This document shows positions 18,007 to 23,357 of a DNA stretch of 64,000 nucleotides, in pieces; the stretch's first letter is position 1, and the number at the start of each line of letters is the position of its first letter. Both the position numbers and the translations under genes were made by a program. Source of the DNA: Microcoleus sp. FACHB-DQ6 (GTDB taxonomy: Bacteria > Cyanobacteriota > Cyanobacteriia > Cyanobacteriales > Microcoleaceae); contig JACJNV010000260.1 of assembly GCA_014695175.1 (NCBI GenBank), positions 21,420 to 85,419 on the forward strand. Direction: 5' to 3'. The notes under the pieces are model-generated. The model had not been told where the DNA came from, did not search any database, and saw nothing but the letters and a program-made list of their open reading frames with translations.

Positions 18007-18741
18007 TTAAAAAGACTGAACTAGCGGTTGAGCGGCAATCGATTCTAGTCCTTGGGACTGCAACAATTGCGTCCACTCGGTCGTCAGCCGCGAATCATCG
18101 GGTGCGAGGCGCCGCATTTCGGCTAGAGTAGCAAGAGCTTCATACCAAATCCCATTTTTAGCATAAGCAATCACCTTAGCCATAGGGTCGGGATTTGCCA
18201 AATCCTTCTTGAGAGTTGCCTGCGGTTCAATTCGCTGCATCCATCCTTTAACAATATAATCTCCGGAACGCTCCAGAGGATCGCAAGCTAGTGCAAACGA
18301 CCACACATATCGCTTACCAACCTCAATATTTTTTGTCTTGCCTTTCTCAGAAAGGCTAACTCCCACAATTCCGGCTTTGTCATTTTTGATAGTAGTTTCG
18401 TAGACTACTTCGGATTCATCTTCATTTAGCAAAACAAACTCTACTTGAGCTGCGGGTTGAGAAACATATACAAAAAATGTTGGCGATTCGGTTAGTGTTA
18501 AACCAATATTGGTTTCAGGTATTAAGGGAGTAATGGATAGACCTTCCCGCAACTGACAGCCTCGATGCGTCCCCCCTTGCCTGTTGTCGGGGGCTGTGAC
18601 ATCTGGGGGTTTGAAATTAACATTCTGACTCAGCAGAATGGGTGCAGGCACAGCCTGCATCGGTGTAAGCAAACTCGGGAGAGTAACGGCGATCGCCAAT
18701 ACAGTCATCGCCAGTGCAGTAAAATCTATAAAACGTTTCAT
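18007..18741 (-). CDS. DUF928 domain protein, copy 1
   Basis: A 244-residue protein with a Sec signal (residues 1-30, FTALAMTVLAIAVTLPSLLTP, cleavage near MQA) and a DUF928 domain. Diagnostic segments: NVNFKPPDVTAPDNRQGGTHRG, LSITPLIPETNIGLTLTESPTFFVYV, and a C-terminal GIWYEALATLAEMRR...WTQLLQSQGLESIAAQPL. DUF928 proteins are cyanobacterial, exported, and of unknown function; they are often near CHASE2 and TPR genes, as here (CHASE2 at 21570). It is a tandem duplicate of the gene at 18883. Confidence 0.9.
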   Translation of the reverse strand: MKRFIDFTALAMTVLAIAVTLPSLLTPMQAVPAPILLSQNVNFKPPDVTAPDNRQGGTHRGCQLREGLSITPLIPETNIGLTLTESPTFFVYVSQPAAQVEFVLLNEDESEVVYETTIKNDKAGIVGVSLSEKGKTKNIEVGKRYVWSFALACDPLERSGDYIVKGWMQRIEPQATLKKDLANPDPMAKVIAYAKNGIWYEALATLAEMRRLAPDDSRLTTEWTQLLQSQGLESIAAQPLVQSF

Positions 18742-18882: not shown

Positions 18883-19620
18883 TTAAAGAGGCCCAACCAG
18901 TGGTTGAGCTGCAACTGATTCCAGTCCTTGGGACTGCAACAATTGCGTCCACTTGGCTGTCAGCCTCGCATCCCCTGGTGTCTGGCGCCGCATTTGGGCT
19001 AAAGTAGCGAGAGTTTCGTACCAAATCCCATTTTGAGCATAAACGTTGAGCCTGGTCATCGGGTCGGGATTTGCCAAATCGCTCTTGAGAGTTGCCTCGG
19101 GTTCAATTCGCTGCACGAACCCTTTAACAACTACATCCGCCGATCGGTCTTCGGGGTCGCAAACTAGCGAAAATGACCACACGTATCGCTTACCAACTTC
19201 AAGGGATTTGTTGTTGCCCGTAGCGGGAATGGTAACTCCAACAATCCCAGATTTGTCAAGTTTAAATGTTTTTTCGTAGACCACTTCCTCTTCCTTGTCG
19301 TTGAGCACAGTAAACTCTATTTTTGCCGAGGTTTGAGGAACATATACAAAAATTGTGGGAGAATCTGTTAGGGTTAAACCGATATTAGTTGGAGGCACTA
19401 AAGGAGTAATAGATAAACCCGCTGGACAAAGCTTGTTGCCGCGATGTGTCCCTCCTTGTCGGTTGGCGGGGGCTGTTACGTCGGGAGGCTTGAAATTAAC
19501 ATTTTGACTCAGCAGAAGCGGCTGAGATTGTGCGCGCATCGGTGCAAGTGAACTGGGTAGGGTAGCTGCGATGGCAGATACGGCGACCGCAAGTGTAGCC
19601 CGATGTATAAAACGTTTCAT
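18883..19620 (-). CDS. DUF928 domain protein, copy 2
   Basis: A 245-residue paralogue of the gene at 18007, with the same signal peptide (MKRFIHRATLAVAVSAIAATLP) and domain layout (PPDVTAPANRQGGTHRG, NIGLTLTDSPTIFVYV, NGIWYETLATLAQMRR). ATG 19620 is preferred: it aligns with the MKRF start of copy 1, while the 30 upstream in-frame codons are unmatched. Copy 2 differs mostly in the middle (KEEEVVYEKTFKLDKSGIVGVTI), where the beta-rich part of DUF928 lies. The 141-bp spacer between the two genes has no clear terminator, so they may be co-transcribed. Confidence 0.9.
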   Translation of the reverse strand: MKRFIHRATLAVAVSAIAATLPSSLAPMRAQSQPLLLSQNVNFKPPDVTAPANRQGGTHRGNKLCPAGLSITPLVPPTNIGLTLTDSPTIFVYVPQTSAKIEFTVLNDKEEEVVYEKTFKLDKSGIVGVTIPATGNNKSLEVGKRYVWSFSLVCDPEDRSADVVVKGFVQRIEPEATLKSDLANPDPMTRLNVYAQNGIWYETLATLAQMRRQTPGDARLTAKWTQLLQSQGLESVAAQPLVGPL

Positions 19621-19869
19621 TTTGTTGTACCTTTCACTATAATTGCAAACACAGGCATTCGCTGATGGTGACAAATATTTTTGAGCTGCTAGTCGAGGCC
19701 GCAGATACACAATTTAAACCTTGACATATCATCAATAACATTAATTAATTCGAGCGGCAAGTGGATTCTCTGTCGGACAAATCAGGTTGCCTAGGTCGCA
19801 AGTATCATTGGATACAGTTGCTCGCCACGTACTGTAAATTTTTGTAACAAAGTGGTCGGAGTTTCCGAG
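19621..19869. other. Intergenic stretch upstream of the IscB element
   Basis: Promoter side of DUF928 copy 2 and the DNA just outside the presumed left end of the IscB element. By the IscB model the guide would be copied from flanking DNA at the element's left boundary, so the exact limit in this stretch or in the next 30 bases matters. I cannot place it from one copy. The stretch contains no reading frame I can support. Confidence 0.35.
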
Positions 19870-20195
19870 TGTTCTAAGATGGAGGAAGTCTCCAGCAGGC
19901 GGGAAAGGTGAAACAACTGCTGTTCCAGAAACGAGTCAAACTTTTATGCTCGGATAGTAAGCAACCCCGGTCTAAAGACACGAGGCTTCAGCAAACAAAC
20001 TGAAGCCGTGCTTACCAGCCTAAGTTTTAATTAACTCCGTTTCGGGGGTTACGACACCAGTGGATGCGTAGCTAGTCTCCTGCTCTGTCGTTTGCAGTTA
20101 AACAGTTTTAAGGTCACTGAAACAGTGCTGCAAACCTAACAAGCCCTCAAAACTTTGGCGAAGCTAACATTACGAGAAATCGAAGAGACACAACA
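19870..20195 (+). ncRNA. Candidate omega-RNA of IscB
   Basis: The 325 bases before iscB are non-coding but highly structured. Stems: CAGCAG/CTGCTG (19893-19898, 19917-19922); GTAAGC/GCTTAC (19957-19962, 20010-20015) enclosing GGCTTCAG/CTGAAGCC (19984-19991, 20000-20007); TTTGCAG/CTGCAAA (20091-20097, 20128-20134) enclosing CACTG/CAGTG (20115-20119, 20123-20127). AACCCC at 19963-19968 can pair with GGGGTT at 20045-20050, crossing the first stem to form a pseudoknot. Known IscB omega-RNAs lie immediately 5' of the gene and carry a guide at their 5' end. Exact ends are not determinable here. Confidence 0.65.
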
Positions 20196-21482
20196 ATGTC
20201 TATTCTAAAACCCAACTACGTCTTTGTTCTAGATACCAAACACAAACCACTAACACCATGCAAACCATCATTAGCACGTAAACTGTTAAAGGTTGGTAAA
20301 GCTAAAGTTTTCAGGATGTACCCTTTCACAATAATTTTGAGGAAGGAGGTAGCTGACGACCCGCGACCCATGATCTTAAAAATTGACCCAGGTTCAAAAG
20401 TTACTGGATTAGCTATACTTTTAGGTTCTGATATAATTTGGGTAGCCCAATTAACCCATCGCGGTCAAGCAATTAAGGCATCGCTAGATTCACGTCGTTC
20501 CCTACGGCGCAGTCGCAGAAGTCGGCACACAAGGTATCGTCAAGCGAGATTTCTAAACCGGACACGTCCCAAAGGTTGGTTGGCTCCTAGCCTTCGACAC
20601 CGTGTAGAAACAACTTTAACTTGGGTCAAAAGATTATCAAGACTTGCACCAGTCAGAACAATCTTTCAAGAATTAGTCAGATTCGATCTAGAGCAGATAG
20701 AAAATCCAGAGATTTCAGGTGTCGAGTACCAGCAGGGTGTATTAGCTGGTTACGAAGTCCGTGAGTATCTGCTCAATAAATGGGACAGACGATGCGCTTA
20801 TTGTAGTGCAGAAAACGTACCGCTACAGGTCGAGCATATTCAGCCAAGAGCATCGGGGGGAACTAACAGGGTATCTAATTTGTGTTTAGCTTGTGAGCCT
20901 TGCAATACCAAGAAAGGTACTCAGGATATCAAGATATTCCTAGCAAAAAAACCTGATGTTTTGAAGAAAATCTTGGCACAAGCCAAACGCCCATTAAAAG
21001 ATGCCTCTGCTGTCAATTCAACTCGATGGACATTGTTTAATCGCCTAAAAGAAACAGGTAAAGTAATTGCCACGGGTTCAGGTGGGTTAACCAAATTCAA
21101 CCGCATACGGTTGGAATTACCAAAAACCCACTTCTTTGATGCTGCTTGCGTTGGTGATACGCCCTCTATTTCTGTACTAGCAAATCAGCCCCTAAACATC
21201 AAAGCGACGGGGCATGGTTCAAGGCAGATGTGTCGCACAGATAAGTTTGGGCTTCCTTCTCGGTATGTTCCTAGATTCAAGTTTGTCAAGGGTTTCCAGA
21301 CAGGCGACATTGTAAAAGCCGTTGTTACTTCGGGCAAGAAGGTTGGAACTTATACAGGTAGGGTCGCTGTTCGCTCATCTGGTAGTTTTAATGTGTCAGC
21401 AGTCCAGGGATTAATTCAAGGAATCAATCACAAATATTGTTTTTCTATTCATCAAAAGGATGGGTATAACTATGGATTTTAA
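20196..21482 (+). CDS. iscB: IscB, OMEGA RNA-guided nuclease
   Basis: A 428-residue IscB, the family from which Cas9 descended. In order: N-terminal PLMP-like domain (residues 8-48, here PLTPCKPSLARKLLKVGKA); RuvC-I with Asp64 (ILKIDPGSKVTG); arginine-rich bridge helix (100-122); RuvC-II with Glu159 (TIFQELVRFD); HNH domain with zinc-type Cys200/Cys203 and Cys233/Cys236, catalytic His214 (VEHIQPRASGGTNRVSNL) and CNTKKG; RuvC-III with His312 and Asp315 (HFFDAACVGD); and a C-terminal target-adjacent-motif-reading domain (about 355-428). Every nuclease residue is intact, so two-strand DNA cutting guided by the upstream RNA is predicted. ATG 20196 follows a purine-rich CGAAGAGACACAAC. Length matches compact IscBs. 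Confidence 0.95.
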   Translation: MSILKPNYVFVLDTKHKPLTPCKPSLARKLLKVGKAKVFRMYPFTIILRKEVADDPRPMILKIDPGSKVTGLAILLGSDIIWVAQLTHRGQAIKASLDSRRSLRRSRRSRHTRYRQARFLNRTRPKGWLAPSLRHRVETTLTWVKRLSRLAPVRTIFQELVRFDLEQIENPEISGVEYQQGVLAGYEVREYLLNKWDRRCAYCSAENVPLQVEHIQPRASGGTNRVSNLCLACEPCNTKKGTQDIKIFLAKKPDVLKKILAQAKRPLKDASAVNSTRWTLFNRLKETGKVIATGSGGLTKFNRIRLELPKTHFFDAACVGDTPSISVLANQPLNIKATGHGSRQMCRTDKFGLPSRYVPRFKFVKGFQTGDIVKAVVTSGKKVGTYTGRVAVRSSGSFNVSAVQGLIQGINHKYCFSIHQKDGYNYGF

Positions 21483-21492
21483 GAGTATTGAC

Positions 21493-21517
21493 GGGACACT
21501 CAAGTACCCCGTGTCCC
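21493..21517 (+). terminator. Hairpin with T-run at the right end of the IscB element
   Basis: GGGACAC (21493-21499) pairs with GTGTCCC (21511-21517), followed by TTTT. Twelve bases on, GGCTAAAGCC forms a second small inverted motif. It may be a terminator for iscB and also part of the subterminal hairpin that Y1 transposases recognise. Confidence 0.55.
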
Positions 21518-21569
21518 TTTTCCTGCCACGGCTAAAGCCACTGGGTTTCCAATCTACCGTGAGGTTTCT

Positions 21570-23357
21570 ATGAGTAAAATATCTAACAAAATTCGATCGG
21601 CAGCGGCTCAATTGAGTCAAATGTATAAACCATCACTAGCATTGGCTAAGTCTGTATTAATTGCCAGCGCGGCAGTAACATTATCATTGATGGGAGCCAG
21701 ACAGCTAGGAATACTCGAACCAGTAGAATTAAGCGCTTACGACCAAATGGTGAGGTGGCGTCCCCAAGAACAGCCAGACTCGCGTTTGCTAGTTGTGGGG
21801 ATTACCGAAGCAGACATTCAGAAACTGAAACAGTGGCCGATATCCGATCGCAAAATAGCTGAAATCTTACAAAAACTCGACAAAATGCAGCCGGCAGTCA
21901 TCGGTTTAGATGTACTGCGAGACGTACCTTTAGGAGACGGGCGCGAGGAATTAACTAAAGTTTTACAAAAAAGCGATCGAATTATCGGGGTATGTTTAGT
22001 CACCGACGGAAGCCCGGACAATCCCGGTTCTCCGCCTGCGCCGGGGCTGCCACAAAACCGGGTGGGATTTGCAGATTTCGGAGTCGATCCGGGTGGCATA
22101 CTCCGCAGGGCTTTATTATTTATGAAACCGCCGACAATAGAGGGCAAATCCTCGGCCCAAAAACATCTTTGCAATGACAATTCTCAAGTTTTAGCTTCCT
22201 TCAACCTCCAGCTAGCACTCCGCTACCTGCAAGGGCAAAAAATCTATCCGCAACTGGCACCTGATCAATCTTTATGGCTGGGAAAAACCCAATTAAAACA
22301 ACTAGCAAGCAATGACGGAGGATATACAAATATCGATGTCAGGGGATATCAAATATTAATTAACTATCGTTCCAAGCAACAAGTCGCAAACCAAGTCAGG
22401 ATTACTGATGTTTTAGAAGGGAAAGTTGACCCAAATTTAGTTAAAGATAAAATTGTTCTCATCGGGTACACCACAGAAACTGTTAAAGATTTGTTTTATA
22501 CTCCTTACAGTGGGCGACAGCAAAAAAACCAATTCATGCCGGGGATCGTGGCACACGCACAAGTAGTCAGCCAAATTCTGAGTGCAGTTTTAGACAACAG
22601 ACCGATGTTTTGGTTTTGGCCGGAATGGGCAGAAATCTTGTGGATTTCGGGATGGTCAATTGTGGGAGGAACCTTGGCATCGCGGATGGCTCACCCAGCG
22701 AAGTTGACGGTGACATTCGGAGCAATGCTGTCCGGGTGCTGCGCGATCGGCTTTGGGATTTTTCTGTTAGGAGGGTGGGTGCCTGTGGCAGCGCCAGCCT
22801 TAGCATTAATCTTAACTGGCGGTAGCATTGTATCAGCAGAGAGATTTAATAAAGCCGGATACGGGAAAGCAATTAGCGATCGAGTAAAACAAGTCTTCAA
22901 AATCGAAATAGACCAAGCCAAAAAAGAACAGCAAGTCGCAGAAATCACAGAATCTGATTTCTTTAAAGAATTGCAGCAAAAGAAAGATAAACTGAGAATT
23001 AGCAAACAAGAAACCTCTGAAAAAGTACCTTCCGAACCCCAAGAAATAACTGCAAGTACCCCAGAGCTTCCCAAGGCCGAAAGTCAGACAGACGAATACC
23101 TAGCTCAGTTGCAGGAAAAAGCCAAACAGCATAAGCAGCGCGTCGCCGTGACTGAATCGGAAAGCGGCTCTCAAACGGGTGCGATCGATGCGGGCGGCGG
23201 TGCTAGTTCAGCCGAAACCAAACCGGATGACGAGTTCAGCGATTTGCAAGCCAAAGCCAAACAGATGCGGCAGCGCAGGGGCGCACAAAAGAGCATAAAA
23301 GATGAAAAAATTGATAGTTTAACTGACAAGGAGGATTTGGGGGGCAAGGAAGAATGA
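21570..23357 (+). CDS. CHASE2 domain membrane protein with coiled-coil tail
   Basis: A 595-residue sensor-like protein. One N-terminal TM helix (about 24-42) leads into an extracytoplasmic CHASE2 domain (about 50-335; typical LSAYDQMVRWRPQEQPDSRLLVVGITEAD, AVIGLDVLRDVPLGDG, KIVLIGYTTETVKDLFYTPYSG, MPGIVAHAQVVSQIL), then two or three closely spaced helices (about 345-425, WIVGGTLASRM..., GFGIFLLGGWVP...). The final 165 residues are cytoplasmic, charged and coiled-coil, with a repeated DEYLAQLQEKAKQHKQR / DEFSDLQAKAKQMRQR motif. No kinase or cyclase output domain is attached, so the signal must pass through the tail, perhaps to the ParA-like ATPase encoded 74 bp downstream. Confidence 0.9.
   Translation: MSKISNKIRSAAAQLSQMYKPSLALAKSVLIASAAVTLSLMGARQLGILEPVELSAYDQMVRWRPQEQPDSRLLVVGITEADIQKLKQWPISDRKIAEILQKLDKMQPAVIGLDVLRDVPLGDGREELTKVLQKSDRIIGVCLVTDGSPDNPGSPPAPGLPQNRVGFADFGVDPGGILRRALLFMKPPTIEGKSSAQKHLCNDNSQVLASFNLQLALRYLQGQKIYPQLAPDQSLWLGKTQLKQLASNDGGYTNIDVRGYQILINYRSKQQVANQVRITDVLEGKVDPNLVKDKIVLIGYTTETVKDLFYTPYSGRQQKNQFMPGIVAHAQVVSQILSAVLDNRPMFWFWPEWAEILWISGWSIVGGTLASRMAHPAKLTVTFGAMLSGCCAIGFGIFLLGGWVPVAAPALALILTGGSIVSAERFNKAGYGKAISDRVKQVFKIEIDQAKKEQQVAEITESDFFKELQQKKDKLRISKQETSEKVPSEPQEITASTPELPKAESQTDEYLAQLQEKAKQHKQRVAVTESESGSQTGAIDAGGGASSAETKPDDEFSDLQAKAKQMRQRRGAQKSIKDEKIDSLTDKEDLGGKEE

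What the first reader, a model, noticed from the sequence alone, without database searches (positions are those of the whole stretch)
19870..21545. IscB nuclease with intact active sites and a structured upstream RNA region
The 428-residue IscB keeps all three RuvC blocks (Asp64, Glu159, His312/Asp315), the HNH His214 with two Cys pairs, the bridge helix, the PLMP-like N-terminus and the C-terminal target-reading domain, and is preceded by 300+ non-coding, hairpin-rich bases. This is the layout of an OMEGA RNA-guided system. An intact system in a cyanobacterial chromosome with no TnpA beside it is a good candidate for an immobilised or repurposed nuclease.
Basis: partly seen in the sequence, partly recalled or inferred. 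Interest (0 to 1): 0.85.

Follow-up and report, generated by a model that had tools for sequence, protein, structure and literature searches.

The report
Mobile IscB element at start codon
This is a complete, recently inserted IscB/HEARO mobile element (an RNA-guided DNA-cutting enzyme with its guide RNA) sitting directly before the start codon of a Microcoleus gene; the kind is already known, and the less ordinary part is that its host also carries 14 similar guide-RNA loci with no enzyme beside them.

Summary
Window 20196-21482 encodes an IscB with all catalytic residues intact. The "hairpin-rich region" is a full HEARO/omega RNA (RF02033, 158.7 bits, 19957-20173). Empty sites in sister Microcoleus genomes fix the element at 19957-21569, inserted without target duplication between a flank that should act as the guide (...CTTTTATGCTCGGATA) and an ATGA that is the start codon of a CHASE2 gene.

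"Immobilised or repurposed" is not supported. The insertion is unique to this genome. Close relatives sit at other sites before ATGA. The nuclease is under purifying selection (dN/dS about 0.11). Lack of an adjacent TnpA is the rule: no IscB listed in the genus has one.

So this is a new member of a known kind. Three points are less routine. (1) Only 3 of 17 HEARO loci in the genome have an IscB; the orphans keep compensatory base pairs and still move. (2) 21 of 39 scorable insertions lie at likely start codons, against 8% of background ATGA. (3) One 404-bp orphan element is 100% identical at the same site in two genomes whose flanks differ by about 4%, as homing by a trans IscB would predict. 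RNA expression, cleavage and mobiliser are untested.

The parts
19941..19956 (+). predicted 16-nt guide: host DNA left of the element (CTTTTATGCTCGGATA)
   Evidence: Left flank equals sister empty sites except one base, C at 19951 (6th from the TAM) where the closest sisters have G; guide position inferred from known IscB systems (PMC9640706).
19957..21569 (+). whole IscB/HEARO mobile element, 1613 bp, no target duplication
   Evidence: Sister genomes align up to about 19956 and again from 21570 with nothing between.
19957..20173 (+). HEARO / omega RNA scaffold
   Evidence: RF02033 158.7 bits, model 1-211 of 211; fold z -3.36.
19970..19979 (+). left-end hairpin GTCTAAAGAC, also the first hairpin of the omega RNA
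   Evidence: Same CTAAAG...G[CT]TTC module as the right end.
20196..21482 (+). iscB, 428 aa, RuvC and HNH nuclease
   Evidence: NF040563 458 bits; closest PDB folds are IscB and IsrB, Z 16-21; dN/dS about 0.1.
21493..21517 (+). hairpin GGGACAC...GTGTCCC followed by TTTT; possible iscB terminator
   Evidence: Kept in the three closest relatives; the whole tail is not more stable than shuffles, so weak.
21530..21549 (+). right-end hairpin GGCTAAAGCC plus GGGTTTC
   Evidence: Found near the right end of about 40 related elements, followed by ATGA or GTGA.
21561..21564 (+). GAGG inside the element, 5 nt before the ATG; possible ribosome-binding site for the downstream gene
   Evidence: GTGAGGTTT[TC]T|ATGA in four sub-lineage copies; function inferred.
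21570..21573 (+). ATGA: presumed target-adjacent motif and start codon of the CHASE2 gene
   Evidence: Present at the same place in the sister empty sites.
21570..23357 (+). CHASE2-domain gene, ORF intact, cut off from its native 5' leader
   Evidence: Pfam PF05226 247 bits.

Best explanation
A complete IscB/HEARO (OMEGA) element that inserted recently before an ATGA. A single-strand (IS200/605-like) transposase supplied from elsewhere probably moves it, reading the two matching end hairpins [inferred]. A transcript starting in the left flank carries about 16 nt of host sequence as guide, followed by the HEARO scaffold [inferred]; IscB binds it and cuts DNA matching the guide with ATGA on its 3' side, that is, the empty allele restored by excision, so that repair copies the element back [inferred from published TnpB/IscB work]. 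The element does not cut itself because its left end puts GTAA where the TAM would be [sequence shown, consequence inferred]. Insertion, ends, intact nuclease and omega RNA are shown; expression, cleavage and mobiliser are not.
For: HEARO hit 158.7 bits. IscB equivalog 458 bits. Catalytic residues invariant. IscB/IsrB top fold matches. Clean empty sites in sister genomes with ATGA at the junction. Same ends at other loci. dN/dS 0.10-0.12. The only guide+TAM-like site in the genome is the element's own left junction, with GTAA in place of ATGA.
Against: No RNA or cleavage data. No promoter-like site upstream of the guide in a sigma-70 scan. No cognate transposase identified; the genome has one near-full Y1 TnpA, in a TnpB-type element without these ends, and two fragments. 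The guide differs from the closest sister alleles at position 6 from the TAM; in OgeuIscB, mismatches at positions 1-14 abolish cutting (PMC9640706), so it may not cut sister alleles.
Confidence: 0.9

Rival explanations
1. Immobilised element whose nuclease has been taken over for a host role, such as defence or regulation of the CHASE2 gene.
For: No adjacent transposase; nuclease intact and under purifying selection; position directly before a start codon could affect the gene.
Against: The insertion is found in one genome only, the sub-lineage is mobile, and lack of TnpA is general in the genus. The guide with TAM has no exact match in viral contigs and no other site in its genome. PADLOC hits cover only the HNH domain.
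Confidence: 0.05
2. A nuclease supplier for guide RNAs in trans: this IscB mainly works with the orphan HEARO RNAs of the genome, and its own guide matters little.
For: 3 IscB against 17 HEARO loci in the genome. Six orphans are 69-77% identical to this HEARO but at most 65% to the two other cis HEAROs. Orphans keep compensatory pairs, also within an orphan-only clade.
Against: No binding data; orphans could have lost iscB recently; the omega-RNA tree mixes cis and orphan copies. Not exclusive of the best explanation.
Confidence: 0.3
3. A dead relic: intact by recent arrival but neither expressed nor active.
For: No promoter-like site found; guide mismatch to sister alleles.
Against: Purifying selection along the lineage and complete RNA and protein.
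Confidence: 0.12

Closest known systems
HEARO (RF02033) RNA and ORF; IscB OMEGA systems (PMC9755519, PMC9640706)
   Same: RNA family, RuvC/HNH nuclease, order of RNA before ORF, C-terminal TAM-interacting fold, TnpA rarely adjacent (PMC9755519). Insertion next to ATGA/GTGA and trans omega RNAs are recalled from the literature, not read here.
   Different: 428 aa, shorter than OgeuIscB (about 495); TAM inferred as ATGA rather than NNRR; motif PLTP instead of PLMP.
IS200/IS605 single-strand transposons with TnpB (PMC8612924, PMC11870625)
   Same: End hairpins, no target duplication, fixed tetranucleotide at one junction, nuclease guided by the flank.
   Different: No tnpA in the element; guide 5' of the RNA; nuclease of the IscB type.
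IsrB nickase (8dmb)
   Same: Fold (Z 20.2) and omega RNA.
   Different: This protein has an HNH domain.

Membership tests
IscB (OMEGA) | RuvC catalytic residues (Ogeu D61, E193, H340, D343) | tested here: met
   D64, E159, H312, D315; invariant in 25 homologues; aligned with PDB IscB.
IscB (OMEGA) | HNH domain with catalytic His (Ogeu H247) between RuvC-II and RuvC-III | tested here: met
   H214, N228, N237, two Cys pairs; Pfam HNH 41 bits.
IscB (OMEGA) | N-terminal PLMP domain and Arg-rich bridge helix | tested here: met
   NF040563 matched 1-314; RRSLRRSRRSRHTRYR at 100-115; motif reads PLTP.
IscB (OMEGA) | C-terminal TAM-interacting domain | tested here: met
   Model aligned to 8csz and 7xht over residues 6-423, Z 20.6 and 17.9; 339-361 of low confidence, so the C-terminal part is moderate evidence.
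IscB (OMEGA) | omega RNA directly upstream | tested here: met
   RF02033 at 158.7 bits, ending 22 nt before the ATG.
IscB (OMEGA) | guide from flank, TAM on the far side of the empty site | tested here: met
   Empty sites join the flank to ATGA; that the flank is used as guide is not shown.
IscB (OMEGA) | RNA-guided DNA cleavage | not testable with these tools
   Needs biochemistry.
IS200/IS605-like element | subterminal hairpins at both ends, no target duplication | tested here: met
IS200/IS605-like element | encodes TnpA (Y1) | tested here: not met
   None in the element; one near-full Y1 gene and two fragments elsewhere in the genome. It is at most a non-autonomous derivative.

The most novel reading that the evidence does not exclude
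Short (about 300-450 bp) transposase-less and nuclease-less omega-RNA elements form a selected, mobile class in Microcoleus that uses IscB proteins such as this one in trans, not only to stay in place but to home into the same allele of other strains. Full elements and orphans land before start codons (ATGA), some with a right end that replaces the ribosome-binding site, so the hit gene can still be translated.
Probability: 0.3. Interest if true: 0.65.

Novelty: new member of a known kind. Interest (0 to 1): 0.38.

Why it matters
It turns a vague 'repurposed nuclease' into a well-bounded natural OMEGA element with its empty site, presumed guide and TAM known, ready for a direct test. The genus offers about 440 HEARO loci, mostly without nuclease, at known sites in 30 genomes: a natural experiment on whether omega RNAs work in trans and drive homing between strains.

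Tried and rejected
A search for end hairpins of this type beside Y1 transposases found no clear match in 15 loci (the first script was too strict and missed even the window's own ends). Exact guide+TAM in viral contigs: none. Altae-Tran 2021, Meers 2023 and Weinberg 2009 are not held, so statements resting on them are recalled. A defence role via PADLOC was rejected: only the HNH domain matches. The stability of the right-end tail is no better than shuffles. An IscB search hit at G000:C42 is a different RuvC-only protein.

Full report
OBSERVATION. The window lies in a draft genome of 6.7 Mb in 402 contigs. Assignment to Microcoleus rests on named relatives: contigs that match genomes of the same genus are recorded as Microcoleus and Tychonema. 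ORF 20196-21482 is an IscB: NCBIfam NF040563 458 bits against a cut-off of 175, Pfam RRXRR and HNH, and PDB IscB chains as best sequence matches. An AlphaFold model (mean pLDDT 70.6) has IscB and IsrB structures as its best matches, Z 16-21, spanning residues 6 to 423.

OMEGA RNA. One Rfam family is found in the 64-kb window, and it is HEARO at 19957-20173, 158.7 bits, full length. The strand folds at -66.3 kcal/mol against -51.9 (sd 4.3) for shuffles. Expression is not tested.

BOUNDARIES. The sequence of the downstream CHASE2 gene was found at this locus in 28 related genomes besides this one. In at least 23 the left flank aligns to about 19947-19964 and the right flank resumes at 21570 or a few bases later with no insert; three more have only short unaligned leaders; two (L070, L084) have other sequence of about 0.9-1.4 kb there. 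The junction reads ...CTTTTATGCTGGGATA|ATGAGTAAAATATC in several of the closest sisters and ...CTTTTATGCTCGGATA|element|ATGAGTAAAATATC here. So the element is 19957-21569, with no target duplication, and its right junction is the start codon of the CHASE2 ORF, which stays intact. The genus set holds one genome per species, so variation within the species is not seen.

ENDS. Both ends carry the same module, a CTAAAG hairpin followed by G[CT]TTC: at 19970-19979 (also the first hairpin of the omega RNA) and at 21530-21549. Among related loci 45 candidate right ends were found; 41 are followed by ATGA or GTGA within 38 nt. Three of the other four look like chance matches inside coding sequence and one has an extra insertion in the hairpin. 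Chance would give roughly a quarter.

START CODONS. Of 39 sites where an ORF could be judged, 21 have the ATGA or GTGA as the start of an ORF of 60 or more codons with no in-frame ATG upstream, against 8% of ATGA in the window. The binomial tail is about 2e-13, but the loci are not independent, and selection against insertions into genes explains at least part of it. The sub-lineage of this element ends in GTGAGGTTT[TC]T|ATGA at four different sites, which would place a GAGG 5 nt before the start codon. That it serves as ribosome-binding site is inferred; it could equally be a transposase recognition sequence.

MOBILITY. IscB copies 90% (L169), 91% (L149) and 86% (L131) identical lie at different sites. 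L169 and L149 differ by dS 0.02 yet have different flanks, so the lineage moved recently. dN/dS between the window and these is 0.10-0.12: the nuclease is kept under purifying selection. No transposase is encoded in the element. In the listed results for 30 genomes, 94 IscB and 89 Y1 transposase matches never lie closer than 26 kb (on coordinates; the weaker Y1 matches were left out). This agrees with the literature, where TnpA is rarely adjacent (PMC9755519). The mobiliser is unknown; a Y1 enzyme acting in trans is inferred.

GUIDE. The 16 nt before 19957 plus ATGA occur nowhere else in the genome within three mismatches except at the element's own left junction, where GTAA replaces ATGA. That is the expected self-protection. 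The guide has C at 19951, the sixth base from the TAM, where the closest sister alleles have G. For OgeuIscB such TAM-proximal mismatches abolish cutting (PMC9640706). Either the strain's empty allele already had C, or the guide has decayed; this cannot be told here.

ORPHAN OMEGA RNAs. The genome has 17 HEARO matches (11 over the gathering score) but 3 IscB genes. Thirty genus genomes hold about 440 HEARO matches (summed) against 94 listed IscB matches over the cut-off. In my sample of 46 loci, chosen by score, 10 have an IscB in cis; one of the 36 others (L042) ends too close to a contig end to judge, and the strands of L055-L057 were guessed (L057 probably wrongly, since an IscB lies beside it), so a few may be misassigned. 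In 28 orphans 32 of 59 predicted pairs show double-sided compensatory changes. An orphan-only clade of 8 (support 0.87) still shows 13 of 69. This suggests selection on the RNA while it works in trans, though earlier cis ancestry cannot be excluded. Two 404-bp orphans in this genome, L004 and L006, are 99% identical at different sites before ATGA, and relatives show empty sites for both.

A HOMING-LIKE CASE. At the L006 site genome G029 carries the same element, 404 of 404 identical, while the flanks differ at 47 of 1500 bases on the left and 64 of about 1300 on the right; the nearest differences are 36 and 68 bases away. At about 4% divergence some 16 differences would be expected in the element. 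Seven other genomes examined there are empty, and G021 has a related element (82% identical) at the same place. Homing guided by an IscB in trans would give this, and so would any short recombination tract between strains. It is one locus.

VERDICT. An ordinary, well-preserved member of the IscB/HEARO kind, recently mobile rather than immobilised. The orphan RNAs, the start-codon preference and the homing-like case are the parts worth following. Trans omega RNAs have, as I recall, been noted before in Ktedonobacter (Altae-Tran 2021; not held), which lowers their novelty.

Noticed in passing
L192 (G028:C1:5034000-5039500); also L193, L194 of G001: A group II intron (RF00029 57.5 bits; 580-aa reverse transcriptase/maturase ORF) sits inside an iscB gene between codons equivalent to window residues 194 and 195, just before the HNH domain. 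Two G001 iscB pieces break at the same codon near contig ends.
   Followed up: partly
L021:1498-2517 (G000:C42) and most genus genomes: A 339-aa protein with PLMP-like and RuvC parts but no HNH domain (95 bits on guided_IscB, below cut-off), present across the genus; IsrB-like and a better candidate for a domesticated relative.
   Followed up: no
L006:1501-1904 and L208 (G029): A 404-bp orphan omega-RNA element 100% identical at the same site in two genomes with about 4% flank divergence; a related element at the same site in G021.
   Followed up: partly
window 18007-18741 and 18883-19710, minus strand: Two adjacent DUF928 genes, apparent tandem duplicates, diverge from the element's insertion site.
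   Followed up: no
L026 (G000:C229): Apparently truncated Y1 transposase next to a TnpB-like ORF, the only near-full Y1 gene in the genome; its ends do not match the HEARO ends.
   Followed up: partly
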